Counted from the first letter of the stretch, positions 33,188 to 47,536 are shown. The stretch is 64,000 nucleotides of DNA from Deltaproteobacteria bacterium (GCA_026417175.1 JAOADT010000007.1:1-64000), one strand, 5' to 3'. Numbers and translations: made by a program. The notes: generated by a model from the letters alone, not told the origin.

Positions 33188-34294
33188 ATGAACATACCCC
33201 TTGTCAATCTTAAGCTTCAATACAAGAAGGTCGAAAAAGAGATTTTAAAAGGTATAAAGGAGATTCTCAAAGAACAAAGGCTTATACTCGGAAAGTACTG
33301 TGCACTTCTTGAGGAAACCATAGGAAAATTCACAGGTGTCAAACACGCGATTTCGTGTGCGAATGGGACTGATGCGCTTATTTTATCCCTCATGTCCCTT
33401 GGGATCGGAGATGGAGATGAAGTTATAACAACCCCTTACACATTTTTCTCTACGGCGAGTTCGATTGCTCTTGTAGGCGCAAAACCTGTTTTTGTGGACA
33501 TTGAGCCAAAGTTTATGAACATTGATCCAGTGAAAATAGAAATGGCGGTAACTGAGAGGACCAAAGCCGTTATTGTTGTTCACCTTTTTGGAAAACTTTG
33601 CCAAATGGAAAAGATAATGCACCTTGCAAGGAAACATGGAATTTACATCGTTGAAGATATGGCCCAGTCGATAGGTGCGCGGAAAAATGGTAAAATGGCC
33701 GGATCTTTTGGACATGTTGCAGCGTTGAGTTTCTATCCCACAAAGAACCTTGGAGGAATAGGAGAGGGTGGAATGGTGTTAACTAAAAGCGGAGAGCTAG
33801 CTAGAAAGTTAAAAATGCTGAGAGTCCACGGGATGGACGAAAAGCCGTACACCCACGAGATTATAGGTATAAATAGTAGACTTGATGAAATTAAGGCCTT
33901 TGCTCTCTATGTGAAATTTTCTTATCTTCAGGAATGGAACAAAAAAAGAATTGAGAATGCAAAGTTTTATAATGAAAAACTTAAAGATCTACCAATTGTC
34001 CTTCCCGATTTAGAGGATGAGGAATCCCATGTGTTTCATCAGTACGTAATAAGGAGTGAAAAAAGGGATGAACTTATGGAATTTCTAAGAAAAAGGGGAA
34101 TACAAACGGGGATATACTATCCCCTTCCACTTCATCTTCAAGAATGTTTCAGTTATCTTGGATATAAAAAAGGAGATTTCCCCTGTGCTGAAGAGGCCTC
34201 AGCAAAAAGCTTGGCAATTCCTGTTTATCCTGAACTAAAAGAGAAGGAAAGGGAGTATATTGTAAAAAGTATACGGAAATTTTTTAGGGCATAG
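33188..34294 (+). CDS. DegT/DnrJ/EryC1/StrS-type PLP aminotransferase
   Basis: A 368-residue sugar aminotransferase-type protein. The PLP lysine lies in SFYPTKNLGGIGEGGM, preceded by the cofactor Asp in IVEDMAQSIGA. The C-terminal GIQTGIYYPLPLHLQ is typical. Such enzymes transaminate keto-sugars for surface polysaccharides, although no glycan genes adjoin it. Its 3' end overlaps the convergent ahbD gene by 11 bases. Confidence 0.93.
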   Translation: MNIPLVNLKLQYKKVEKEILKGIKEILKEQRLILGKYCALLEETIGKFTGVKHAISCANGTDALILSLMSLGIGDGDEVITTPYTFFSTASSIALVGAKPVFVDIEPKFMNIDPVKIEMAVTERTKAVIVVHLFGKLCQMEKIMHLARKHGIYIVEDMAQSIGARKNGKMAGSFGHVAALSFYPTKNLGGIGEGGMVLTKSGELARKLKMLRVHGMDEKPYTHEIIGINSRLDEIKAFALYVKFSYLQEWNKKRIENAKFYNEKLKDLPIVLPDLEDEESHVFHQYVIRSEKRDELMEFLRKRGIQTGIYYPLPLHLQECFSYLGYKKGDFPCAEEASAKSLAIPVYPELKEKEREYIVKSIRKFFRA

Positions 34295-35288
34295 TGCAGT
34301 ACGGTTCGCCTTCCATAAAATCGCCGTACTCTTCGTATGATCTTGCCCTGCAGCCTCCGCATATGTCGAGGTACCTACATCTTCCACATTTTCCCTTGTA
34401 TTGAGAGTAATCCCTTAGTCTCAGAAACACTTCTGAGTTTTTCCAAACGTGTTCTACCCCTTCAGTTTTGACATCTCCACAGGGGATCTCCAGATACCCA
34501 CAGGGTTGGGTTACACCAGTGTGAGATATAAACATAAAACTTTTTCCTGCAAGACATCCAGAACTTCTTAAGGTTTCTCCGTTTTCCTTTAGTATTCTAT
34601 AGTATTGGGGACCGCATGTCACCTTTATTTCCAGCTCTCTTTTTCTTTCGAGAGTGTATATTAGCCTTAAGGTTTCCTCATATTCTTCTGCCTTAAGAAC
34701 TTTTTCTTTTATGTTTTTCCCCCGGCCTACCGGAAGAAGCATGAAAACATGCCAAGCGGAAGCTCCCAGTGAGATTGCAAGTGCGTAAATATTCTCCAAA
34801 TCATTAATATTCATGTAAGTGACAGTGGTGTTTATCTGGAAAGGAAGATTTTCCTCTTTCATTATTTTTGCGGCATTGACGATATATTCGAATGAGCCAT
34901 TTACTCCCCTGAAGTGGTCATGAGACTGACTGTCTTTTCCGTCTATGCTCAAACTTACCCTTCTTATATTCAGTTTTTTTAAAGTTCTCGCTATTTCTTT
35001 TGAAATAAAAGTCCCGTTCGTTGCAAGTACAGTATAAAGACCCCTTTCATTTGCATAGCTTATAATCTCAAAGATATCATTTCTGAGCAAGGGCTCTCCA
35101 CCTGTTAAAATGATCACAGGTGAAGAAAAAGACGAAATAGAATCAATTACCATCTTACATTCATCTGTGGTGAGTTCCTGTTCATCTCTTTCCTTGATAG
35201 CAGAGGCTCTGCAGTGAAGACACGATAGATTACAGGACCGAGTGAGTTCCCATGCTACCATTCTTAGAGGAAACTCTCTTTTAGCCAT
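34284..35288 (-). CDS. ahbD: Heme b synthase (radical SAM AhbD)
   Basis: A 334-residue radical SAM/SPASM enzyme that decarboxylates Fe-coproporphyrin to heme in the siroheme-dependent pathway. The cluster motif is CNLSCLHC in [16 protein letters not shown]. The SAM-binding GGEPLLR and the SPASM C-terminus [17 protein letters not shown], with further cysteine ligands, fit AhbD. Assignment is supported by neighbours hemB and ahbC on the same strand. Its start overlaps the hemB 3' end by 25 bases. A general peptide-modifying SPASM enzyme is the alternative, but context disfavours it. Confidence 0.88.
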
Positions 35289-36250
35289 CTTGCTACGTCC
35301 TTAGCAAAGTAAGTTATTATAATGTCGGCTCCTGCCCTTCTGATTGAAATAAGTAGCTCTGTTACACTTCTTTTATAGTCTATAAATCCTGCTTTTGAGG
35401 CCTCTTTTACCATGAGGTATTCCCCACTTACTGAGTAAGCAGCAATAGGCACGTTAAATGCTTGTCTTGCCATACTTATAACATCTAGATAAAAAAGGGC
35501 GGGCTTTACCATGACTATATCAGCTCCCTCATGTATGTCTAACTCTATCTCTTTTAGCGCCTCCCTTTTGTTTGGAAAGTCCATCTGGTAAGATTTTCTG
35601 TCTCCAAATTGAGGTTGAGACTCAGCTGCGACACGAAAAGGACCATAGAGGGAAGAAGCATACTTTGCCGAGTAGCTCATAATGGGAATGTCATGATACC
35701 CATTTTTGTCGAGTGTCTCTCTTATAACTTTCACTCTACCGTCCATCATATCTGACGGTGCAATTATGTCAGATCCAGCCTCGGCGTGGGAAAGGGCTAC
35801 CTTTGAAAGAATTCTTAATGTCTCGTCGTTATCAACAGAGGTGTCTTTTATAATTCCGCAGTGTCCGTGACTTGTATATTCGCAGAGACATACATCCGTT
35901 ATGACCAAAAGATTTTTACCAACAATTGCTTTTATTTTCCGTACGGTTTTCTGTATTATGCCATTTTCATCATAAGCTGAAGATCCTTTTTCATCCTTCT
36001 TGTCTGGTATGCCAAAAAGGATTATTGCAGGTATAGAAAGACTCATCACTTCTTCTATTTCCTCTAAAATCCCTTCAGGAGAAAACTGATATATGCCAGG
36101 CATAGAAGGAATCTCAACCTTTTTTTCAGGCATCTCTTTGACAAAAAGAGGATAAACTAAATGATTTATAGTAAGATCTGTCTCCCTCACAAGGTTTCTT
36201 ATGATCTCAGTTTTTCTTAATCTCCTTGGTCTCGTAAAAGGGTACTCCAT
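35264..36250 (-). CDS. hemB: Porphobilinogen synthase (zinc type)
   Basis: A 328-residue HemB, condensing two 5-aminolevulinate molecules. The zinc-binding cysteines are in [14 protein letters not shown]. The Schiff-base lysines are in [15 protein letters not shown] and [11 protein letters not shown]. It is flanked by two radical SAM heme genes, with 3 bases to ahbC upstream, forming an ahbC-hemB-ahbD operon. Confidence 0.96.
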
Positions 36251-36253
36251 CTT

Positions 36254-37402
36254 TTAAAGAATCTCCTCATCAGTTAGGTAACACTGGGGATCCGGTGCCC
36301 AAAAGTCTTTCGTTTTTTGATAAGCTCTTGCTCTGAAATTCCCCCCACATATGTGAAGAAACTTACATTTAGAGCACCTTCCTTTAATGTAAAGCTTTTT
36401 ATTTCTCAATTGTACCAGCATTTCATTACTTTCATCCGACCATATGGCGCTAAAAGGTCTTTCCCTTATGTTTCCGAGTTTAAGATCCCTAAAGAACTGG
36501 TCCGGATAGACGTTTCCGCTTTCATCGATACAAGCGATCCCTATACCTGATAGATTTCCCTCATTCTTAGACAAAAGTTCGTATACTTCATTTGCTCTTT
36601 TAGGGTCTTCTTTTAGGAGTTTTAGATAGACATAAGGTCCGTCTGCATGGTTATCTACAGTCAAAACCTCAATTTTACCATTTTTTGTAAAGATTTCTTT
36701 GGCTCTTACCAGTATGTAATCCATTATCTGTCTTCGTTCTTCGTGGGTGAGATCTAAGGTCATGAGGTTTTTGCCTCTTCCTGAGTACACCAGATGGTAA
36801 AAGCAGATCCTGTCAACCCCTTCTTTTTCAAAAAAGTCTAGTATAGCTGGTATTTGGCCAAAATTTTCTCGGTTAATGGTGAACCTTATGCCTACTTTTA
36901 TATTTGACTTTTTACAGTTAATTATCCCCTGTTTTGCCATTTCGAAGGCACCGTTTTTTCCCCTGAATATGTCATTTACTTCGCCGATACCGTCTAAACT
37001 TATCCCAACGTACGAAACACCAACTTTTTTCAATTTTTTTGCAACCTCTTCAGTTATCAATGTTCCGTTTGTGGAAAGAACAGTTCTGATCCCTTTTTTT
37101 TGAGCATAGTCAAAAAGTTCAAAAATGTCCTCTCTCAAAAGAGGTTCTCCTCCTGAAAATAAAAGAACCGGTATTCCAAAAGAAGAAAGATCATCTATTG
37201 TCAATTTTGCCTCTTCTTTCGAAATCTCTTCCCGGTCGTTTTTTTCAGCGTTTGAAGCCGCATAACAGTGTTTACAGAAGAGGTTGCACCTTCTCGTTAA
37301 GTTCCAAACTACGACCGGTTTTCTTTCTCGAGCATTAGTCCGATAGCGCAACTGATCAAATGTTTCTTCGGCTCCGCAGTAAAGTTTTGTAATGCTAACC
37401 AA
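36254..37402 (-). CDS. ahbC: 12,18-didecarboxysiroheme deacetylase (radical SAM AhbC)
   Basis: A 382-residue radical SAM/SPASM enzyme removing acetate side chains from didecarboxysiroheme to give Fe-coproporphyrin III. The N-terminus is ISITKLYCGAEE-like (actual SITKLYCGAEETFDQLRY), a hallmark of AhbC. The cluster motif is CNLFCKHC, followed by GGEPLLREDIF, and the SPASM cysteines end in CSKCKFLHICGGNFRAR. Together with HemB and AhbD it supports heme made from siroheme, as in sulfate reducers and methanogens. AhbA/B are not in the window. Confidence 0.9.
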   Translation of the reverse strand: MVSITKLYCGAEETFDQLRYRTNARERKPVVVWNLTRRCNLFCKHCYAASNAEKNDREEISKEEAKLTIDDLSSFGIPVLLFSGGEPLLREDIFELFDYAQKKGIRTVLSTNGTLITEEVAKKLKKVGVSYVGISLDGIGEVNDIFRGKNGAFEMAKQGIINCKKSNIKVGIRFTINRENFGQIPAILDFFEKEGVDRICFYHLVYSGRGKNLMTLDLTHEERRQIMDYILVRAKEIFTKNGKIEVLTVDNHADGPYVYLKLLKEDPKRANEVYELLSKNEGNLSGIGIACIDESGNVYPDQFFRDLKLGNIRERPFSAIWSDESNEMLVQLRNKKLYIKGRCSKCKFLHICGGNFRARAYQKTKDFWAPDPQCYLTDEEIL

Positions 37403-37807: not shown

Positions 37808-38656
37808 ATGTTAAATCCTGAGGAAAGGTTAAGAATTGAAGAGCTCGCATACATTCCCGAGCACACAGTTTCCCTTATGACAATCATATCTGATGGAGAA
37901 GCTTTTTTTGAGGAAGGTTTTTTGTATTTTAAGGGAGACCACTGGCTCATATTTGTAGGGTATCCGATCCAGAAGGAGTATTCTGAAGAGGCTGTGATAA
38001 AATTTGTTTTTCGTCTCAGAGATTTGTTTCAATTTGATTATTTGTGGCTGATTTGTCCTAAAGTACCCGGGATATTAAAAAAGGAAGCTTCTATTTACGT
38101 TAAAGACAATTATTACACTTTAGATTTAGGGTCTTTTAACCCCCCTAATAGGCTAGTCAAAAGACTGGAAAAAGTCTCTCAAAAAATCTACGTAACCAGA
38201 TCTACCGTGTATACGGATGAACACGAAGCGGTTTTGGTTAACTTCGTAAAAGAAAAAAAACCCGAACCCTTCGTTAAAGCTTTATACTGCTCTATGCGTA
38301 AATATGTCTCTCATTCTGATTCGGCAATACTTTTAAATGCCTACGATGCTAATAGAAATCTTATAGCATTCTACGTTATAGATAATGGAGCCAAAGAGTT
38401 TATAACCTATGTTGTTGGATGCAGAAAAACGAATTCACTGTTTTTTGGAGTATCCGATCTAATATTTTTAAAAATGGTGGAATTAGCTTTGGAGATGAGA
38501 AAGAAATATATTCACTTAGGGCTTGGAGTAAATGAAGGAATAAAACGGTTCAAAGAAAAATGGGGAGGTGTGCCTTCCATCCCTTACGAGTTTGTAGAGT
38601 TGAGGCGAAAAAAGGGTATTTTCAATTTGCTAAAAGGCATAGAAGGTATTATATAA
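37808..38656 (+). CDS. GNAT/FemAB-like acyltransferase (first paralogue)
   Basis: A 282-residue protein resembling GNAT-fold or FemAB-like transferases. Its C-terminal half carries KKYIHLGLGVNEGIKRFKEKWGG, where the LGLGVNEGIKRFK segment resembles the conserved 'G...FK..GG' end of these folds. The N-terminus has AYIPEHTVSLMTII. It is a clear paralogue of the gene at 39495, with shared motifs at both ends. It opens a tight operon with a TraB-like gene, the second paralogue and a radical SAM gene. The substrate is unknown. Confidence 0.8.
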   Translation: MLNPEERLRIEELAYIPEHTVSLMTIISDGEAFFEEGFLYFKGDHWLIFVGYPIQKEYSEEAVIKFVFRLRDLFQFDYLWLICPKVPGILKKEASIYVKDNYYTLDLGSFNPPNRLVKRLEKVSQKIYVTRSTVYTDEHEAVLVNFVKEKKPEPFVKALYCSMRKYVSHSDSAILLNAYDANRNLIAFYVIDNGAKEFITYVVGCRKTNSLFFGVSDLIFLKMVELALEMRKKYIHLGLGVNEGIKRFKEKWGGVPSIPYEFVELRRKKGIFNLLKGIEGII

Positions 38657-38670
38657 GGGGTTTAAAAGAT

Positions 38671-39501
38671 ATGGTTCCATTTTTAAGACAAAAACGTTTC
38701 AGAATGATATTTAGGATTACCAAAGGAGATAAAGTCAATTATCTCTCTGGCACTGCTCATTTCTTTCCTTACAGCTTTAAAAAATCCCTCAGTAGACTAA
38801 TCTCAAAGGTGGATGTGGTTCTTTTCGAGGGACCTCTAAACGAAAGTGACATGATAAAAATAGCTAGTTACGGATGTACAAGTTCTTCCACTGATTCTTT
38901 ACTGGATATGCTGACTGAAGAAGCGCGCGGCATGTTAGTTAAAGAGTTTGAGACATTCGATCTTGGGAAACATTCAGAAATTCTTCGATACATGTACGTT
39001 AAAATGGACAAAAGTTTCTTAGAAATGGAGATTCGGGGACTTAAACCATGGATGGCCTTCTTCAAAATCTGGTCCTTCTATCTCAGGAAAAGAGGCTGGG
39101 TCTACTCAGTGGATATGGAGGCACACTTTTTGGCAAAAAAGTTAGGGAAAAATATCCATTATCTTGAGACAATTGAAGAACAGATTAAAGCCCTGGAAGG
39201 GATGCCGGTTGAGCGGATAATCGATTTCTTAAATCTCTGCTCCAAATGGCGCGATTATGCTGAAACACATGCGGATTTTTATTTGAAAGGAGAGCTTGAT
39301 GCTCTTCTAGGAGCAACTACATCTTTTCCCACCAGGTGTGAATCAATAATAGACAAAAGAGATCCTATTCTATTTGAAAGGATGATTCCATTTTTAGAAA
39401 AAGGTAATGTTGCTATTTTCGTGGGTGTAACACATGTAAAGGGGATCTCGAACAGACTTGAAACTGAAGGATACTCGGTTTCTCAGCTGGTTCAATGTTA
39501 A
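38671..39501 (+). CDS. TraB/GumN family protein
   Basis: A 276-residue protein of the TraB/GumN family (PF01963), related to the Tiki metalloprotease fold. It carries the N-terminal VNYLSGTAHFFP and DVVLFEGPL and the C-terminal AIFVGVTHVKGISNRLETEGY, where the G-x-x-H motifs are possible metal sites. I start it at ATG 38671 (after GGGG), 14 bases after the previous gene, not at the ORF start inside that gene. Its last codons overlap the next gene by 7 bases. No signal peptide is evident. Confidence 0.85.
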   Translation: MVPFLRQKRFRMIFRITKGDKVNYLSGTAHFFPYSFKKSLSRLISKVDVVLFEGPLNESDMIKIASYGCTSSSTDSLLDMLTEEARGMLVKEFETFDLGKHSEILRYMYVKMDKSFLEMEIRGLKPWMAFFKIWSFYLRKRGWVYSVDMEAHFLAKKLGKNIHYLETIEEQIKALEGMPVERIIDFLNLCSKWRDYAETHADFYLKGELDALLGATTSFPTRCESIIDKRDPILFERMIPFLEKGNVAIFVGVTHVKGISNRLETEGYSVSQLVQC

Positions 39502-40331
39502 CGCGAGAACAGGAATGCTTTATTAAGAAAAAGGCTTATGTTCCTGAACATATTTATCCTTATGTGGTATCGGTTTCCGGTGCTGAGCCTTACTTTTACG
39601 AACCTTTCATCGTTTACGAAAAGAAAGAATCTCTGATAATAGTTGGATATCCCATAGATTGTGACTTCCGAGAAGAAATATTCTGCGAGACTCTGAACCA
39701 ATTAAAAAATAAAAAAAAGAAAAAGAGAATCCTTGGAATCTTACCAAAGCCACTCAAGGGTCTAAAACCTAAGTCTTCGGACCATTATTACATATTACAA
39801 CTAGAAAATTTAGTCATAGATCAAAAAACAAAGAATATGATCAAAAGGGCAAAAAAGGAGCTAGTGATAGAAACTAAAAATGAGCTTACCTTTGATCATA
39901 TTGATCTTATAGAGCGTTTTATCTCTTGGAAAAGATTTGACGAGGAAACATCATTAATTTTTAGAAACCTATCTACCTATGTTAATAATAAAAACCATGT
40001 TAAAGTGATAACTGCTCGTAACGCTAAAGGAAACCTTATAGCATTCGATGTAGTTGACACCTGCGGTTTGGATTACGCTTTTTATATGTTCAATGTACGC
40101 TCGCAGAGCGAATATGTTCCGGGCACATCTGATTTGCTTTTTGAGCAGATCATACGAATAGCAGCAGAAGAGGGTAAAAAGTTCGTAAATCTTGGACTAG
40201 GTATAAACGATGGCATCAGGTTTTTCAAGAAAAAATGGGGAGGAAGACCATATCTGGAGTATCATCTCTATGAGTGGTGGTCTCAAGAGACGCTATTTTA
40301 TATCTTGATGAATAGGTTCTTAGGTGAGTAA
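39495..40331 (+). CDS. GNAT/FemAB-like acyltransferase (second paralogue)
   Basis: A 278-residue paralogue of the protein at 37808. Both share a YVPEHIYPYV/YIPEHTVSL N-terminus, a GYPI segment, G-(V/T)-SDL and the KKFVNLGLGINDGIRFFKK C-terminal motif followed by WGG. The ATG lies inside the TraB gene's end, and the TAA is followed immediately by the radical SAM ATG with no spacer. Duplicate acyltransferases in one operon suggest two successive or alternative acyl transfers to one product. The function is unproven. Confidence 0.8.
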   Translation: MLTREQECFIKKKAYVPEHIYPYVVSVSGAEPYFYEPFIVYEKKESLIIVGYPIDCDFREEIFCETLNQLKNKKKKKRILGILPKPLKGLKPKSSDHYYILQLENLVIDQKTKNMIKRAKKELVIETKNELTFDHIDLIERFISWKRFDEETSLIFRNLSTYVNNKNHVKVITARNAKGNLIAFDVVDTCGLDYAFYMFNVRSQSEYVPGTSDLLFEQIIRIAAEEGKKFVNLGLGINDGIRFFKKKWGGRPYLEYHLYEWWSQETLFYILMNRFLGE

Positions 40332-41408
40332 ATGGGATGTTTAGAAATTTTTCGCACTAAAAAATTTTACGCTTGGCAAATAGAGATAACTACTAAGTGT
40401 GCTTTTTTTTGCAAGATGTGTATTAAGGCCGAATGCATAGACTACGAAAAAAAAGATATGAAAATTGAAGATTTCAAAAAGCTTGTTTCATATTTCCCCT
40501 ATGTGAGAAGTGTTGTACTTGAAGGATGGGGAGAATCGGTGCTTCATCCCCATTTTTTGGATTTTGTGTCTATTGTAAAAAATGAGGGACCCAGGGTCGG
40601 TTTTGTCACTAGTGGATATGGACTGGACGAAAGTTACATAAAAGAACTTTTGAAATTGGGCATCGATTTTTTAGGATTTTCCTTTTCAGGAGCAAAAGCG
40701 TCCACGCACGAAAATATAAGGGTGAATTCTCATTTTGACGAGCTTATAGGATCTATAAGGTCTTTCCAAGAGCACGCCAAAACTCTTAAATTAAAGTCTC
40801 CTAAGATGCACATAGTTTATCTTCTTCTTAAAAATAACATTGAAGATTCGCCGTTTATAGTTGATCTTGCAAAGGATTTAGGAATAAAAGAAATTGTTTT
40901 TTTAAATATTATCCAGATTTCTAGCCAGGCTCAAAACGAGATGAAAGTGTTTTCGTATGATGAAAATACTGCATACGACATTATAATTCGTGAAGTCCAA
41001 AGAAAAGCCTCCTCTTACGGGATAAAAGTTCATTTACCTTCCTTTACGGCGAACCAAGAATTGACCACGTGTCCAGAAAGGCCCCTGGAGTCACTTTACG
41101 TTTCGGTGGAAGGAGATGTTTCGCCATGTGTATACCTCAACCCGCCAGTAAAATCACCCTTTGTAAGAATTTTCAAAGACAAAATATATCATATAGAAAG
41201 AGTAAAGTTTGGAAACCTTTTCTCTGAATCCCTTGATACTATATGGGAAAGAGATGAGTATATAGCCTTTAGAGATAGTTATTTAAAAAGAGAATTAGCG
41301 GCTAAACAGATGTTTGAAAGTTTATTCAATTTTAGGTTTTTTAATGCCTTTAATCTTCCACATGTGCCAGAACCTTGCAGGACTTGTCATAAGATCTACG
41401 GCCTTTGA
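40332..41408 (+). CDS. Radical SAM enzyme with SPASM/twitch-like C-terminus
   Basis: A 358-residue radical SAM enzyme. The cluster motif is CAFFCKMC (residues about 22-29), in ITTKCAFFCKMCIKAEC, with two extra cysteines near it. The C-terminal part has CPERPLESLYVSVEGDVSPC and PCRTCHKIYGL, a SPASM-like auxiliary cluster set. The middle VLEGWGESVLHPHF replaces the usual GGEP. It ends the GNAT-TraB-GNAT-rSAM operon. It is not one of the AhbC/D enzymes, and its substrate is unknown. Confidence 0.88.
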   Translation: MGCLEIFRTKKFYAWQIEITTKCAFFCKMCIKAECIDYEKKDMKIEDFKKLVSYFPYVRSVVLEGWGESVLHPHFLDFVSIVKNEGPRVGFVTSGYGLDESYIKELLKLGIDFLGFSFSGAKASTHENIRVNSHFDELIGSIRSFQEHAKTLKLKSPKMHIVYLLLKNNIEDSPFIVDLAKDLGIKEIVFLNIIQISSQAQNEMKVFSYDENTAYDIIIREVQRKASSYGIKVHLPSFTANQELTTCPERPLESLYVSVEGDVSPCVYLNPPVKSPFVRIFKDKIYHIERVKFGNLFSESLDTIWERDEYIAFRDSYLKRELAAKQMFESLFNFRFFNAFNLPHVPEPCRTCHKIYGL

Positions 41409-41448: not shown

Positions 41449-41670
41449 CTATTCCTCCTTAATTATTATTATTTTGTATCCTACTCCTTCTGGCTCTATA
41501 GATTTTATGGTCCAACCGTGGGATATCACAGCGCGTGACACATTTTCCTTAGATGTGTCTGTATCCACAAGGATACAGATCTCACCTTGTTTCAATTTCT
41601 TTATTTCTTCTATAGTTAAAATAACGGGTTGCGGGCAAGAAAGCCCTCTTAGATCTAAAACTGTGCTCAT
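41449..41670 (-). CDS. TusA/SirA-family sulfur or selenium carrier protein
   Basis: A 73-residue TusA-fold protein. LDLRGLSCPQPVI contains the CPxP active-site cysteine. I start it at ATG 41670, preceded by GAGGAGG; the longer ORF start at 41727 would overlap yedE. It lies 17 bases downstream of yedE on the same strand, so it probably carries persulfide or selenium for that membrane protein. YedF proteins have the same N-terminal domain. Confidence 0.93.
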   Translation of the reverse strand: MSTVLDLRGLSCPQPVILTIEEIKKLKQGEICILVDTDTSKENVSRAVISHGWTIKSIEPEGVGYKIIIIKEE

Positions 41671-41687
41671 AAGAACCTCCTCGTTTA

Positions 41688-42782
41688 CTAACTCTTTTTT
41701 CTCATAGTAAATCCTACAAATAGGCATACCATAAGTCCTATTATAACCGCATGGGCTCCGTACTGACCAATCCCATCAGGAGAACTTGCTAAAGAGAAAT
41801 TATGAGAGATAGCAGCTCCAACTATCATGCCAAGAACGAACACTCCGGCATCAGCATCACCCTCACCTGCTAAGAAAAGCTGCCTGCCGGGACATCCGCC
41901 AGCTAATGTAAAGGCTAACCCCGCCAAAACCATGCCCCCAAAATTCCACAATTGCATGCTATGCGCGATAGGTTGTTTTTCAAACCCTGGATTGAACTGA
42001 CCCAAAATAAGATTTGTGATGAAAGAAAAAATAGCTAAGGCCAAGACACCTGAAAGAAGATGTGTTTGTTTGAATAGAAGAAAGTCTCTAATGGCCCCCA
42101 TGGTGCAAAATCTGCTTCTTTGAGCTAAAAATCCTATAAAGATGCTGAAAGAAAGAGATACCAGAAGCGGTGCGTGCATTGAGCCAGGGCCTTTCATACT
42201 GTAAAAAAGAATACCACTTTTGTCTTGACCCGGGGTTTGGGGGAAAACAATGACAAGACAGAGAAGACCAAGCATTATAAGTGGTATTATCCAGCCAACA
42301 GATGCGTATGTGGGCTGTGATCTTCCAAGGTTATACCCTGCTCTTAAAAACAAGGTGCCGATCCATATGCCAAAAATCAATCCTGCTATTCCGAATAAAG
42401 CGTTTCCATCTCCTCCCGTAAGACGTAAGAAAGCTCGCCAGGGACAGCCTAAAAATACAAGTGCACCTATCATCGCAAATACACCAAGTATGAACCTAAC
42501 GATTGGCGCAGATCCGGTTCTAGGTCTAAACTCTTTGTAGGAATAGGCTGCAATGAGTGAGCCGAAAACGAAACCGATAATCTCCGGCCTAATATACTGT
42601 GCGAGCTGAAAGCGGTGAAGTCCAATTGCTCCTGCTATGTCCCTCTGAAAACAGGCGACGCATACTCCCATATTAGGTGGGTTACCCAGTTTCTGTAAAA
42701 GAGGAGCAAGAACCCCTATGATTGCCCCCACTGTTACGATTCCTAATCTGGTTGCAAAGAAAGTAAAGAGTTTTTTTTGCAT
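41688..42782 (-). CDS. yedE: YedE-family selenium/sulfur transporter-like membrane protein
   Basis: A 364-residue membrane protein of about ten helices. GCPWRAFLRLTGGDGNALFG, with a conserved cysteine, and the later TLAGGCPGRQLFLAGEGDAD are hallmarks of YedE (TIGR04112, linked to selenium metabolism). The cysteine in RSRFCTMGAIRD is the third conserved one. The GGAGG ribosome binding site overlaps the start of a long leader with strong structure (42861-42985). It is followed by the tusA-like gene, while the DUF3343/yedF pair is 5 kb away. Confidence 0.93.
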   Translation of the reverse strand: MQKKLFTFFATRLGIVTVGAIIGVLAPLLQKLGNPPNMGVCVACFQRDIAGAIGLHRFQLAQYIRPEIIGFVFGSLIAAYSYKEFRPRTGSAPIVRFILGVFAMIGALVFLGCPWRAFLRLTGGDGNALFGIAGLIFGIWIGTLFLRAGYNLGRSQPTYASVGWIIPLIMLGLLCLVIVFPQTPGQDKSGILFYSMKGPGSMHAPLLVSLSFSIFIGFLAQRSRFCTMGAIRDFLLFKQTHLLSGVLALAIFSFITNLILGQFNPGFEKQPIAHSMQLWNFGGMVLAGLAFTLAGGCPGRQLFLAGEGDADAGVFVLGMIVGAAISHNFSLASSPDGIGQYGAHAVIIGLMVCLFVGFTMRKKS

Positions 42783-43942: not shown

Positions 43943-44527
43943 ATGAATGTAAGAATTTTAGGAGTACTGGTAATTTTAATCATAGGTACGTCGCTTACGG
44001 GATGTGGATGCTTCCAGCAGGCGATAAAAGGAGAAAAAGCACCGCCTTCACCTCCACCTGAAGCAAGAATACTGAAACCAGAAGAAAAACCGGCGATTCC
44101 TATTACGCCTCCCCAAGAGACACCAAAAGTAGTGACTCCTTCACCGGTTCCTAGTCCAGTGACTGCGCCTACACCAAAGGTGGCAGAGCCTCAGTATGTT
44201 CTTAAGGATATAAATTTTGATTTTGACAAGTACAACATTAGACCCCAAGATGCGGAAATACTTAAAGAAAATCTTAATTGGTTTAAAGCTAATCCCGGAA
44301 AAAGAGTAAGAATTGAGGGACACTGTGACGAAAGGGGTACATCTGAATATAATCTTATACTTGGCCAGAAAAGGGCAGACGCAACTAAAAACTATCTTGT
44401 GAATCTGGGAGTAGACGAAAAACTGCTGGAGACTGTAAGTTACGGAAAAGAAAGACCGCTTGATCCAGGACATAATGAGGAGGCATGGGCAAAGAACAGG
44501 AGAGCTCATTTCTTAATACTTCCTTAA
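43943..44527 (+). CDS. pal: Pal-like OmpA-domain peptidoglycan-associated lipoprotein
   Basis: A 194-residue lipoprotein. Signal peptide and lipobox: MNVRILGVLVILIIGTSLTGC. A proline-rich linker (about residues 40-85) is followed by an OmpA domain (about 85-194) with INFDFDKYNIRPQDAEIL, RVRIEGHCDERGTSEYN (with the conserved Asp and Arg contacting peptidoglycan) and a KNRRAHFLIL C-terminus. It tethers the outer membrane to the wall, usually with Tol proteins, which are not seen here. The ATG at 43943 follows AGGGGTG; the ORF start at 43913 lacks a signal peptide and lies in a palindrome. A terminator follows its stop. Confidence 0.93.
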   Translation: MNVRILGVLVILIIGTSLTGCGCFQQAIKGEKAPPSPPPEARILKPEEKPAIPITPPQETPKVVTPSPVPSPVTAPTPKVAEPQYVLKDINFDFDKYNIRPQDAEILKENLNWFKANPGKRVRIEGHCDERGTSEYNLILGQKRADATKNYLVNLGVDEKLLETVSYGKERPLDPGHNEEAWAKNRRAHFLILP

Positions 44528-45630
44528 CCCAAAAAAATGGGAAGGGGGCTGAAATTGCCCCCAGGTTTTTTTACGGGGTAGACGCTTTAGCGAAATTATT
44601 TGCGCTATCAGGGGCGCAACTAAAAATTTTTAAAGAAGTAGACAGATACTTTCCGGTAAGAATTCCAGGATTTTATCTTTCTCTTATGAGCTCAGATGAC
44701 CCTTTCTGTCCAATTAAGAGACAGGCCTTACCGAGTCTAGAAGAACTATCAGGAAGTGGGCATGAGGATCCTTTAGCGGAGAATGATAATTCATTAACCC
44801 CCAGTTTTATAAAAAAATACCCCGGAAGAGGGGTTTTTCTAATAAGTTCAGAGTGTGCCATGTTTTGTCGTTTTTGTAACAGAAAAAGAGTATTAGGCCG
44901 GAACGTGGACTTTGAGAGTTCTTGGGATGAGACTTTCGAGTGCATGGAAAAAATGGAAGACTTGCGAGAGGTCATAATTTCTGGTGGAGATCCTTTAATG
45001 CAGAGTATTGATAAACTTTATTACGTCTTAGAGAGGATTCGAAGAATAAGACGGGTAAGAACGTTAAGGATAAGCACGCGGGTCCCTGTTGTTTTTCCTC
45101 AGGGGATTAGTGAAGAATTTCTTAAAATACTGACTAAATTTAATCCATTATGGATCGTTATTCACATAAATCATCCCAGAGAAATCACTGAAAGCTTTAA
45201 AAGAATCATAAGAGAAATTCAAAAAAAAGGGTCTCCCGTGATAAGCCAGACTGTTCTTTTAAGAGGGGTAAATGATTGTGCGAGAACTCTTATTGAACTG
45301 TTTGATGGTTTGGTAAGTTTAGGAATAAAGCCTTATTATCTTTTCCAGCTTGACGAAGTAATAGGGGCTCAACACTTCAAGGTTAGACTCTCCGATGGCA
45401 TAAGAATTTATAAAACCATCAGGAAGCATTCCTCAGGCCTTGCCGTTCCAAACTATGTAGTAGACCTAAGTGGTGGGCTTGGAAAAGTTTCAGTAACCGA
45501 AAGTTTAATAAGAAAAAACGGGGGAGTCGGGTATTTTCGAACTGATGATGGGAAGATTGGTAAATACGGAGATGATGGATATGAAAGTGAATGCAAACGG
45601 TGTGGACTTTGCGTTCACACAGAAGAATAA
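44485..45630 (+). CDS. kamA: KamA family radical SAM aminomutase (lysine/glutamate 2,3-aminomutase type)
   Basis: A 381-residue PLP and radical SAM enzyme of the KamA/EpmB family. The cluster motif is CAMFCRFC in ISSECAMFCRFCNRKR. Preceding YLSLMSSDDPFCPIKRQ and following ISGGDPLMQS are family hallmarks. C-terminal CKRCGLCVHTEE may add a cluster. It is somewhat shorter than clostridial KamA, so it may act on EF-P or as a glutamate mutase. The start is uncertain: the only ATG in frame lies inside pal and the pal terminator falls at codons 20-30, so translation may really begin at a rare codon near 44557. The following adk is 19 bases away. Confidence 0.88.
   Translation: MGKEQESSFLNTSLTQKNGKGAEIAPRFFYGVDALAKLFALSGAQLKIFKEVDRYFPVRIPGFYLSLMSSDDPFCPIKRQALPSLEELSGSGHEDPLAENDNSLTPSFIKKYPGRGVFLISSECAMFCRFCNRKRVLGRNVDFESSWDETFECMEKMEDLREVIISGGDPLMQSIDKLYYVLERIRRIRRVRTLRISTRVPVVFPQGISEEFLKILTKFNPLWIVIHINHPREITESFKRIIREIQKKGSPVISQTVLLRGVNDCARTLIELFDGLVSLGIKPYYLFQLDEVIGAQHFKVRLSDGIRIYKTIRKHSSGLAVPNYVVDLSGGLGKVSVTESLIRKNGGVGYFRTDDGKIGKYGDDGYESECKRCGLCVHTEE
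44544..44572 (+). terminator. Intrinsic terminator after pal
   Basis: GGGGGC-TGAAATT-GCCCCC followed by AGG and seven T. It lies 17 bases after the pal stop. It also falls inside the annotated N-terminal part of the kamA-like ORF. Confidence 0.85.
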
Positions 45631-45649
45631 CTTAGAAGGAGGTTTTTTT

Positions 45650-46297
45650 ATGAGAATAGTGTTACTTGGTGCTCCAGGTGCTGGAAAAGGAACGGTGGCA
45701 AAAATGCTAATGGAATATGACGGTTCTGTTCAAATTTCTACGGGTGATATCCTCAGAAATGCTGTGAAGCATGGAACTGAGCTTGGATTAAAGGCAAAGA
45801 CCTACATGGACAGAGGAGAGCTTGTTCCAGATGACTTGATAATAGAGATAATAGAGGAAAAGATTAAAGCTCCGGACTGCGAAAAGGGGTTCATCCTTGA
45901 TGGATTTCCAAGGACCATAAACCAGGCAGAACGATTAAAAGACCTGCTTAAACGGATCAATTTAAAACTTGATGCAGTAATAAACTTGGATGTACCAAAA
46001 GAAGTTGTTCTTGAGAGATTGACTACAAGAAGAACTTGTTCCAATCCGGAATGTCAAGAGATTTACAACGTGAAAAGCAAACCACCTTCACCCGATGGGA
46101 AATGCCTGAAATGTGGATGGCCTGTAGTGCAAAGAGATGATGAAACAGAGGAAGCGATCAACAAGAGACTTGAGGTTTATAATGAAAAAACTGCCCCTCT
46201 CATAGAATATTACAAAAAAGAAGGACTTCTTCATAACGTCAGCTCTTTAAGCAGCGAAGAGATAGTAAAAGAGATAATAAAGATAGTGAAAAGCTAG
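45650..46297 (+). CDS. adk: Adenylate kinase with four-Cys zinc LID
   Basis: A 215-residue Adk. The P-loop is LLGAPGAGKGTVA, the NMP part QISTGDILR and the core DGFPRTINQAERL. The LID carries four cysteines with the pattern C-x4-C...C-x2-C (CSNPEC and CLKCGWP), so it binds zinc, as in many thermophiles and Gram-positives. AAGGAGG lies before the ATG at 45650; the longer ORF overlaps kamA. Confidence 0.97.
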   Translation: MRIVLLGAPGAGKGTVAKMLMEYDGSVQISTGDILRNAVKHGTELGLKAKTYMDRGELVPDDLIIEIIEEKIKAPDCEKGFILDGFPRTINQAERLKDLLKRINLKLDAVINLDVPKEVVLERLTTRRTCSNPECQEIYNVKSKPPSPDGKCLKCGWPVVQRDDETEEAINKRLEVYNEKTAPLIEYYKKEGLLHNVSSLSSEEIVKEIIKIVKS

Positions 46298-47297: not shown

Positions 47298-47348
47298 TTG
47301 AGTGCAAATAGTCGACAAAAAATTAAGTCATTTTGTATTTACACCTAA

Positions 47349-47434
47349 TGCCGGAGGCGGGGGTCGAACCCGCACGGGGTTTAAACCCCACCGGATTTTG
47401 AGTCCGGCGCGTCTTCCAGTTCCACCACTCCGGC
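47349..47434 (-). tRNA. tRNA-Leu (anticodon CAA)
   Basis: On the minus strand, acceptor halves GCCGGAG and CTCCGGC pair. The anticodon stem CCGGA/TCCGG holds the loop CTCAAAA, giving anticodon CAA (Leu, UUG). A long variable arm (GGGGTTTAAACCCC, a hairpin) marks it as class II. The T arm is GCGGGTTCGACCCCCGC. The 3' CCA is not encoded. Confidence 0.95.
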
Positions 47435-47536
47435 AGCTTTTTTATCATACAATACACATAAAGGATGTTGCAACAGTCTGATTCTTTCAACAAAAAATTT
47501 ATATGGAACATTTGTAACCGCTAGTACCAAATATTT

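What the first reader, a model, noticed from the sequence alone, without database searches (positions are those of the whole stretch)
37808..41408. GNAT-TraB-GNAT-radical SAM operon of unknown function
Four genes with 14-base, overlapping (7-base) and zero-base junctions encode two paralogous acyltransferase-like proteins, a TraB/GumN-like protein and a radical SAM/SPASM enzyme. No precursor peptide or biosynthetic partner is obvious. Paired transferases around a metalloprotease-like protein suggest a new modification pathway (peptide, lipid or cofactor).
Basis: partly seen in the sequence, partly recalled or inferred. Interest (0 to 1): 0.7.

Follow-up and report, generated by a model that had tools for sequence, protein, structure and literature searches.

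The report
Conserved GNAT–TraB–GNAT–radical-SAM sulfur-linked cassette
Four adjacent genes encode an undescribed four-part enzyme set that sulfite-reducing bacteria keep together and sometimes fuse into one protein; it probably builds or modifies something from amino acids in connection with sulfite handling, but the product is unknown.

Summary
It is a real, widely conserved system. In the phylum sample 25 of 297 genomes carry the GNATs. The cassette's TraB family was found in all 16 GNAT-bearing genomes tested, with one weak hit (2e-9) among 64 without. Fusion proteins tie the set together: GNAT-TraB (~600 aa), GNAT-TraB-GNAT (878-1081 aa) and GNAT-radical SAM (645 aa), in the window's order and with catalytic motifs kept. 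The best structural matches of the GNAT are FemX, MprF-type lipid aminoacyltransferases and streptothricin-type tRNA-dependent peptide synthases, so aminoacyl-tRNA is a likelier donor than acyl-CoA. New link: 23 of 25 carrier genomes have dsrA (144 of 297 overall), and the radical SAM gene or its homologues sit next to a long YeiH-type (sulfite-stress) transporter gene in ten families. I read it as an undescribed tRNA-dependent aminoacyl-transfer plus radical-SAM pathway attached to dissimilatory sulfite metabolism. Substrate and product are unknown; no precursor peptide is in the operon.

The parts
37808..38656 (+). GNAT-1: double-GNAT (FemX/MprF-like) transferase, 282 aa
   Evidence: AYVPEH and F-K-x-K-W motifs invariant or nearly so; always with TraB; fused to TraB in other genomes
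38671..39501 (+). TraB/PrgY/GumN-family protein, 276 aa, soluble form
   Evidence: PF01963 5.9e-33; GTAH30, E53 and GVTH255 invariant; family restricted to GNAT-bearing genomes
39495..40331 (+). GNAT-2: double-GNAT transferase, 278 aa
   Evidence: AlphaFold2 pLDDT 91.5; best PDB matches FemX, L-PGS/A-PGS, MprF, Sba18/Sbb17; F244-K245 invariant in 42 homologues
40332..41408 (+). radical SAM/SPASM enzyme, 358 aa
   Evidence: CX3CX2C at C23/C27/C30 and C-terminal cysteines invariant; best NCBIfam model TIGR04317 at 163.6 bits, under its 380 cutoff; homologues next to YeiH in ten families
41449..41727 (-). TusA-like sulfurtransferase gene, convergent with the cassette; possible functional neighbour
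   Evidence: PF01206 3.9e-17; next to cassette or radical SAM also in L038, L077, L123
41688..42782 (-). YeeE/YedE-type sulfur transporter gene next to TusA; possible functional neighbour
   Evidence: PF04143 2.9e-14; same loci as TusA

Best explanation
The four genes encode one functional unit: two FemX/MprF-like transferases, a TraB-family metallohydrolase and a radical SAM/SPASM enzyme, acting in a sulfur (sulfite) metabolic setting. Likely mechanism: each GNAT protein moves an aminoacyl group from a charged tRNA onto a shared acceptor (small molecule, peptide or protein); the TraB protein hydrolyses or trims an amide or ester intermediate; the radical SAM enzyme makes a radical modification of the same product; in many lineages a YeiH-type exporter gene is coupled to it. 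Shown: co-conservation, order, fusions, motif conservation, fold, association with YeiH and dsrA. Inferred: aminoacyl-tRNA as donor, hydrolase role, order of steps. Unknown: acceptor and product.
For: Gene order GNAT-1/TraB/GNAT-2/radical SAM conserved in families f1, f9, f21 and in a Syntrophaceae record. Fusions GNAT-TraB, GNAT-TraB-GNAT in four genomes and GNAT-radical SAM in one. TraB family in 16 of 16 GNAT-positive and 1 of 64 GNAT-negative genomes tested, the one at 2e-9. GNAT-2 model (pLDDT 91.5) matches FemX E 1.9e-11, L-PGS 4.6e-11, MprF ~4e-10, Sba18/Sbb17 ~3e-9. Weak sequence hits point the same way: LPG_synthase_C in 16 of 42 members, arginyltransferase in 11, FemAB in 4. The F-K dyad invariant in all 42 fits FemX Lys305 and DhpH-C Phe328/Lys329 (PMC12945691). 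Two helices are net positive (about +3) across the 42. GNAT with dsrA 23/25 vs 121/272, p 3e-6; radical SAM next to YeiH in 18 of 40 genomes with both, ten families; YeiH drives sulfite stress resistance in Salmonella (PMC12880088).
Against: CoA-dependent tandem GNATs and N-myristoyltransferases also match the fold, with slightly weaker scores, so the donor is not proven. The F-K correspondence is by motif, not by superposition of coordinates. No tRNA synthetase paralogue, precursor or substrate gene is in the operon. Radical SAM homologues occur with YeiH in genomes lacking the GNATs, so the radical SAM step does not always need the rest. In the window's own genome YeiH is on another contig. 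In a test on independent tree pairs, GNAT presence did not predict YeiH adjacency. All genome associations come from one phylum.
Confidence: 0.42

Rival explanations
1. The GNATs are acyl-CoA-dependent and the operon acylates a lipid, sugar or cofactor; TraB is a deacylase and the radical SAM enzyme tailors the same compound.
For: GNAT fold in general; matches to CoA-bound tandem GNATs (2wpw, VipF) and N-myristoyltransferases at 1e-8; Acetyltransf_6 hits in 10 of 42 members.
Against: All 27 best PDB matches apart from 2hqy (a solved protein of unknown function) are FemX, MprF-type or streptothricin-type aminoacyl-tRNA enzymes; invariant F-K dyad as in FemX/DhpH-C; two conserved basic helices.
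Confidence: 0.2
2. A ribosomal-peptide (RiPP-like) pathway: the radical SAM/SPASM enzyme modifies a precursor peptide, TraB cleaves it, the GNATs add amino acids; the precursor is encoded elsewhere.
For: SPASM domain; TraB family proteins are thought to be peptidases (established knowledge).
Against: No room for a precursor gene in the operon (short upstream gap, tight junctions); no small gene recurs next to the cassette across families.
Confidence: 0.15
3. The radical SAM protein is a metalloenzyme (tungsten oxidoreductase) maturase of the TIGR04317/TIGR04311 type and the other three genes help in that maturation.
For: Best sub-threshold NCBIfam models are TIGR04317 (163.6 bits) and TIGR04311 (128.7).
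Against: Scores far below cutoffs 380/400; all five aldehyde ferredoxin oxidoreductase genes of the genome lie on other contigs; the recurrent partner is YeiH, not AOR.
Confidence: 0.08
4. The GNATs are protein modifiers (ATE/Bpt-like N-terminal or side-chain aminoacylation) acting on a sulfur-pathway protein such as YeiH or the NF038143 protein encoded beside it.
For: Sub-threshold arginyltransferase hits in 11 of 42 members; NF038143 genes lie beside GNAT-2 and YeiH in L037 and L053 and beside YeiH and the radical SAM gene in L059.
Against: NF038143 occurs in only 5 of the 67 genomes tested, all 5 among the 25 carriers; no common target feature seen in the YeiH extension.
Confidence: 0.13

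Closest known systems
FemX/FemAB/MurM and VlmA/DhpH-C/PacB/Orf11/Sbb17 aminoacyl-tRNA-dependent GNAT-fold transferases
   Same: double-GNAT fold, invariant F-K dyad, conserved basic helices
   Different: only about 11-16% structural identity, no Pfam/NCBIfam membership; comes as an obligate pair with TraB and radical SAM
MprF-type lysyl/alanyl-phosphatidylglycerol synthases (PF09924)
   Same: fold and weak sequence similarity in 16 of 42 members
   Different: window members below the gathering score; no flippase domain; soluble; TraB partner instead
TraB/PrgY/GumN (Tiki-like) family PF01963
   Same: above cutoff (115 vs 26.8 bits), both GxxH motifs and Glu invariant
   Different: short soluble form without the C-terminal membrane part usual in PrgY (from knowledge); fused to GNATs; confined to this cassette in the genomes tested
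TIGR04317/TIGR04311 radical SAM/SPASM maturases
   Same: best-scoring radical SAM models
   Different: less than half of the cutoff scores; not next to aldehyde ferredoxin oxidoreductase; next to YeiH in ten families
YeiH putative sulfite/sulfate exporter (PF03601, TIGR00698)
   Same: recurrent neighbour of the radical SAM gene and of the cassette
   Different: long form of about 510-620 aa with an N-terminal extension, below the TIGR00698 cutoff

Membership tests
TraB/PrgY/GumN PF01963 | Pfam gathering score | tested here: met
   115.3 vs 26.8 bits
TraB/PrgY/GumN PF01963 | paired GxxH motifs and conserved Glu (definition from memory) | tested here: met
   GTAH30, E53, GVTH255 invariant in 14 homologues and GxxH motifs kept in fusions
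TraB/PrgY/GumN PF01963 | hydrolase/peptidase activity | not testable with these tools
   needs biochemistry
aminoacyl-tRNA-dependent GNAT transferases (FemX-like) | double-GNAT fold | tested here: met
   Foldseek E 1.9e-11 to FemX, TM 0.65
aminoacyl-tRNA-dependent GNAT transferases (FemX-like) | catalytic Lys after Phe (FemX Lys305) | tested here: inconclusive
   F244-K245 invariant in 42 but matched by motif, not by superposition
aminoacyl-tRNA-dependent GNAT transferases (FemX-like) | use of aminoacyl-tRNA | not testable with these tools
   needs assay
PF09924 LPG_synthase_C | Pfam gathering score | tested here: not met
   18.8 vs 27.5 bits for GNAT-2; GNAT-1 no hit
TIGR04317 tungsten-cofactor radical SAM maturase | curated score | tested here: not met
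   163.6 vs 380 bits
TIGR04317 tungsten-cofactor radical SAM maturase | neighbouring aldehyde ferredoxin oxidoreductase | tested here: not met
   five AOR genes, all on other contigs
TIGR04311 radical SAM/SPASM metalloenzyme maturase | curated score | tested here: not met
   128.7 vs 400 bits
radical SAM/SPASM superfamily | CX3CX2C and SPASM cysteines | tested here: met
   invariant; CX3CX2C in 51 of 52 homologues
RiPP pathway | precursor peptide gene nearby | tested here: not met
   no conserved short ORF next to the cassette

The most novel reading that the evidence does not exclude
An undescribed multi-enzyme assembly, GNAT-TraB-GNAT plus radical SAM, makes a tRNA-derived aminoacyl compound or modification that sulfite-reducing bacteria use with a YeiH-type transporter to handle sulfite or a sulfonated or thiol product; a new pathway with no known counterpart.
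Probability: 0.3. Interest if true: 0.85.

Novelty: new variant of a known kind. Interest (0 to 1): 0.62.

Why it matters
No paper in the library searched links TraB, GNAT and radical SAM/SPASM, yet these enzymes are fused to each other in nature. The fusions make a shared pathway close to certain and give a concrete target: a tRNA-dependent modification system tied to dissimilatory sulfite reduction, a central process of the anaerobic sulfur cycle, and a possible first role for a bacterial TraB protein as an enzyme in a defined pathway.

Tried and rejected
Chance neighbourhood: rejected by conservation and fusions. Tungsten-enzyme maturation: below cutoffs, no AOR nearby. Precursor peptide: none found. 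Sequence search of solved structures with the GNAT profiles: no hit even at E 10 for the combined profile. Plasmids: no relative. NF038143 as the general partner: only 5 of the 67 genomes tested, i.e. 5 of 25 carriers. YeiH N-terminal extension as radical SAM target: no striking conserved motif. TraB model gave only weak structural matches. Search outside the phylum through a named Nitrospirae record was not possible with the tool.

Full report
Observation. TraB and radical SAM/SPASM calls pass curated cutoffs; the two GNATs are paralogues with only sub-threshold sequence hits. No tRNA or Rfam family overlaps them; the only one in the window is a tRNA-Leu at 47348-47435.

Conservation. Searching the phylum sample, 25 of 297 genomes carry the GNAT family, nearly always as a pair. 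Fetched neighbourhoods show GNAT-1/TraB/GNAT-2/radical SAM in that order in families f1, f9, f21 and a Syntrophaceae record, with different flanking genes. In f1 the flanks (AhbD-HemB-AhbC) are also kept. Variants: GNAT-2/GNAT-1/TraB with the radical SAM gene elsewhere (f22); GNAT-1/TraB and GNAT-2/radical SAM on separate contigs (G177). The cassette TraB family was found in 16 of 16 GNAT-bearing and 1 of 64 other genomes, the exception at 2e-9.

Fusions. In f41, f77 and f91 GNAT-1 and TraB are one protein of about 600 aa. In f41 four genomes have GNAT-TraB-GNAT in a single open frame of 878-1081 aa, without internal stops and with both F-K motifs and both TraB GxxH motifs intact, and one has a GNAT-radical SAM fusion of 645 aa with CX3CX2C. 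Domain order equals the window's gene order. This is the strongest evidence that the four act together.

What the GNATs are. AlphaFold2 gave a confident model of GNAT-2 (pLDDT 91.5, pTM 0.85). The best PDB matches are FemX, L-PGS/A-PGS/MprF and the streptothricin-type peptide synthases Sba18/Sbb17, all aminoacyl-tRNA enzymes, together with 2hqy, a solved protein of unknown function; CoA enzymes follow. Over 42 homologues the invariant residues are P17, E18, D96, H135, D213, G234, L235, F244, K245, K247, W248. A review describes Lys305 of FemX and Lys329/Phe328 of DhpH-C as the catalytic site (PMC12945691); the F244-K245 pair fits by motif. Two helices are net positive across the family. This favours aminoacyl-tRNA as donor but does not prove it.

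TraB and radical SAM. TraB keeps GTAH30, E53 and GVTH255. The radical SAM protein has invariant CX3CX2C and C-terminal cysteines but stays well below every named NCBIfam equivalog.

Sulfur link. Radical SAM homologues (E <= 1e-40) occur in 59 of 297 genomes, wider than the GNATs. In 18 genomes of ten families they lie within 3.2 kb of a long-form YeiH gene, most within 1.1 kb. Against a random-placement model this is extremely unlikely (about 1e-16 counted by family), although that model ignores operon clustering. Genome co-occurrence (Fisher, not corrected for phylogeny): GNAT and dsrA 23/25 vs 121/272 (p 3e-6), GNAT and YeiH 21/25 vs 59/272 (p 6e-10), and the latter also within dsrA-bearing genomes (p 7e-8). 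In G177, G125 and G081 the order runs cassette part, YeiH and, within about 6 kb, dsrA. TusA-YeeE lies beside the cassette in the window and L038, and near the YeiH-radical SAM pair in L077 and L123. YeiH is the main sulfite-stress factor of Salmonella (PMC12880088). A tree of the radical SAM proteins has two well-supported sides, each holding cassette-bearing and YeiH-adjacent members; a test on independent pairs found no further correlation between GNAT presence and YeiH adjacency, so the two links may be separate properties of the radical SAM gene.

Mechanism. Shown: a single conserved functional unit, its folds and motifs, and its genomic association with YeiH and dsrA. Inferred: tRNA-dependent aminoacyl transfer, hydrolysis by TraB, radical modification, and a role in sulfite handling. 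Unknown: acceptor and product. The rivals are acyl-CoA chemistry, a RiPP with a remote precursor, protein aminoacylation and metalloenzyme maturation.

Novelty. The library of papers holds none with TraB, GNAT, radical SAM and SPASM together, and none naming the nearest radical SAM models or NF038143. The enzyme families are known; their combination, fusion and sulfur setting are not described in what I could search. I file it as a new variant of tRNA-dependent GNAT pathways, with a categorically new pathway as the open upper case.

Limits. All genome statistics come from one phylum, many genomes are fragmented MAGs, and genomes share ancestry, so p values overstate independence. Family numbers f1, f41 and so on are the tool's unnamed labels.

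Noticed in passing
window 34284-37402 (-): AhbD-HemB-AhbC (siroheme-to-heme pathway) divergent from the cassette; the same arrangement in the two other genomes of the family (L038, L039).
   Followed up: partly
window 44485-46297 (+): Lysine 2,3-aminomutase-like ORF overlapping a 250-aa ORF, a possible beta-lysine (AblAB-like) pair judged by eye.
   Followed up: no
L037 6574-8008, L053 8244-9490, L059 2438-3037: NF038143 (HYxxLL) family genes beside GNAT-2 and YeiH (L037, L053) or beside YeiH and the radical SAM gene (L059); all 5 genomes with the family among 67 tested are cassette carriers.
   Followed up: partly
L115 3640-3909: An 89-aa GNAT remnant directly upstream of an intact radical SAM-YeiH pair in a genome with no other GNAT: apparent decay of the cassette.
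   Followed up: partly
L062 5453-7429: One 658-aa ORF reads GNAT-1, then the first third of TraB, then the C-terminal part of the radical SAM protein; an internal deletion or an assembly error.
   Followed up: no
L120 9906-12168: Two divergent homologues of the radical SAM gene face each other in a genome whose cassette is scattered over several contigs.
   Followed up: no
L057, L127, L136: TerC-family membrane protein genes lie near YeiH or the radical SAM homologue.
   Followed up: no
G000 contigs C9, C11, C88, C97: Five aldehyde ferredoxin oxidoreductase genes in the window's genome, none on the cassette's contig.
   Followed up: yes
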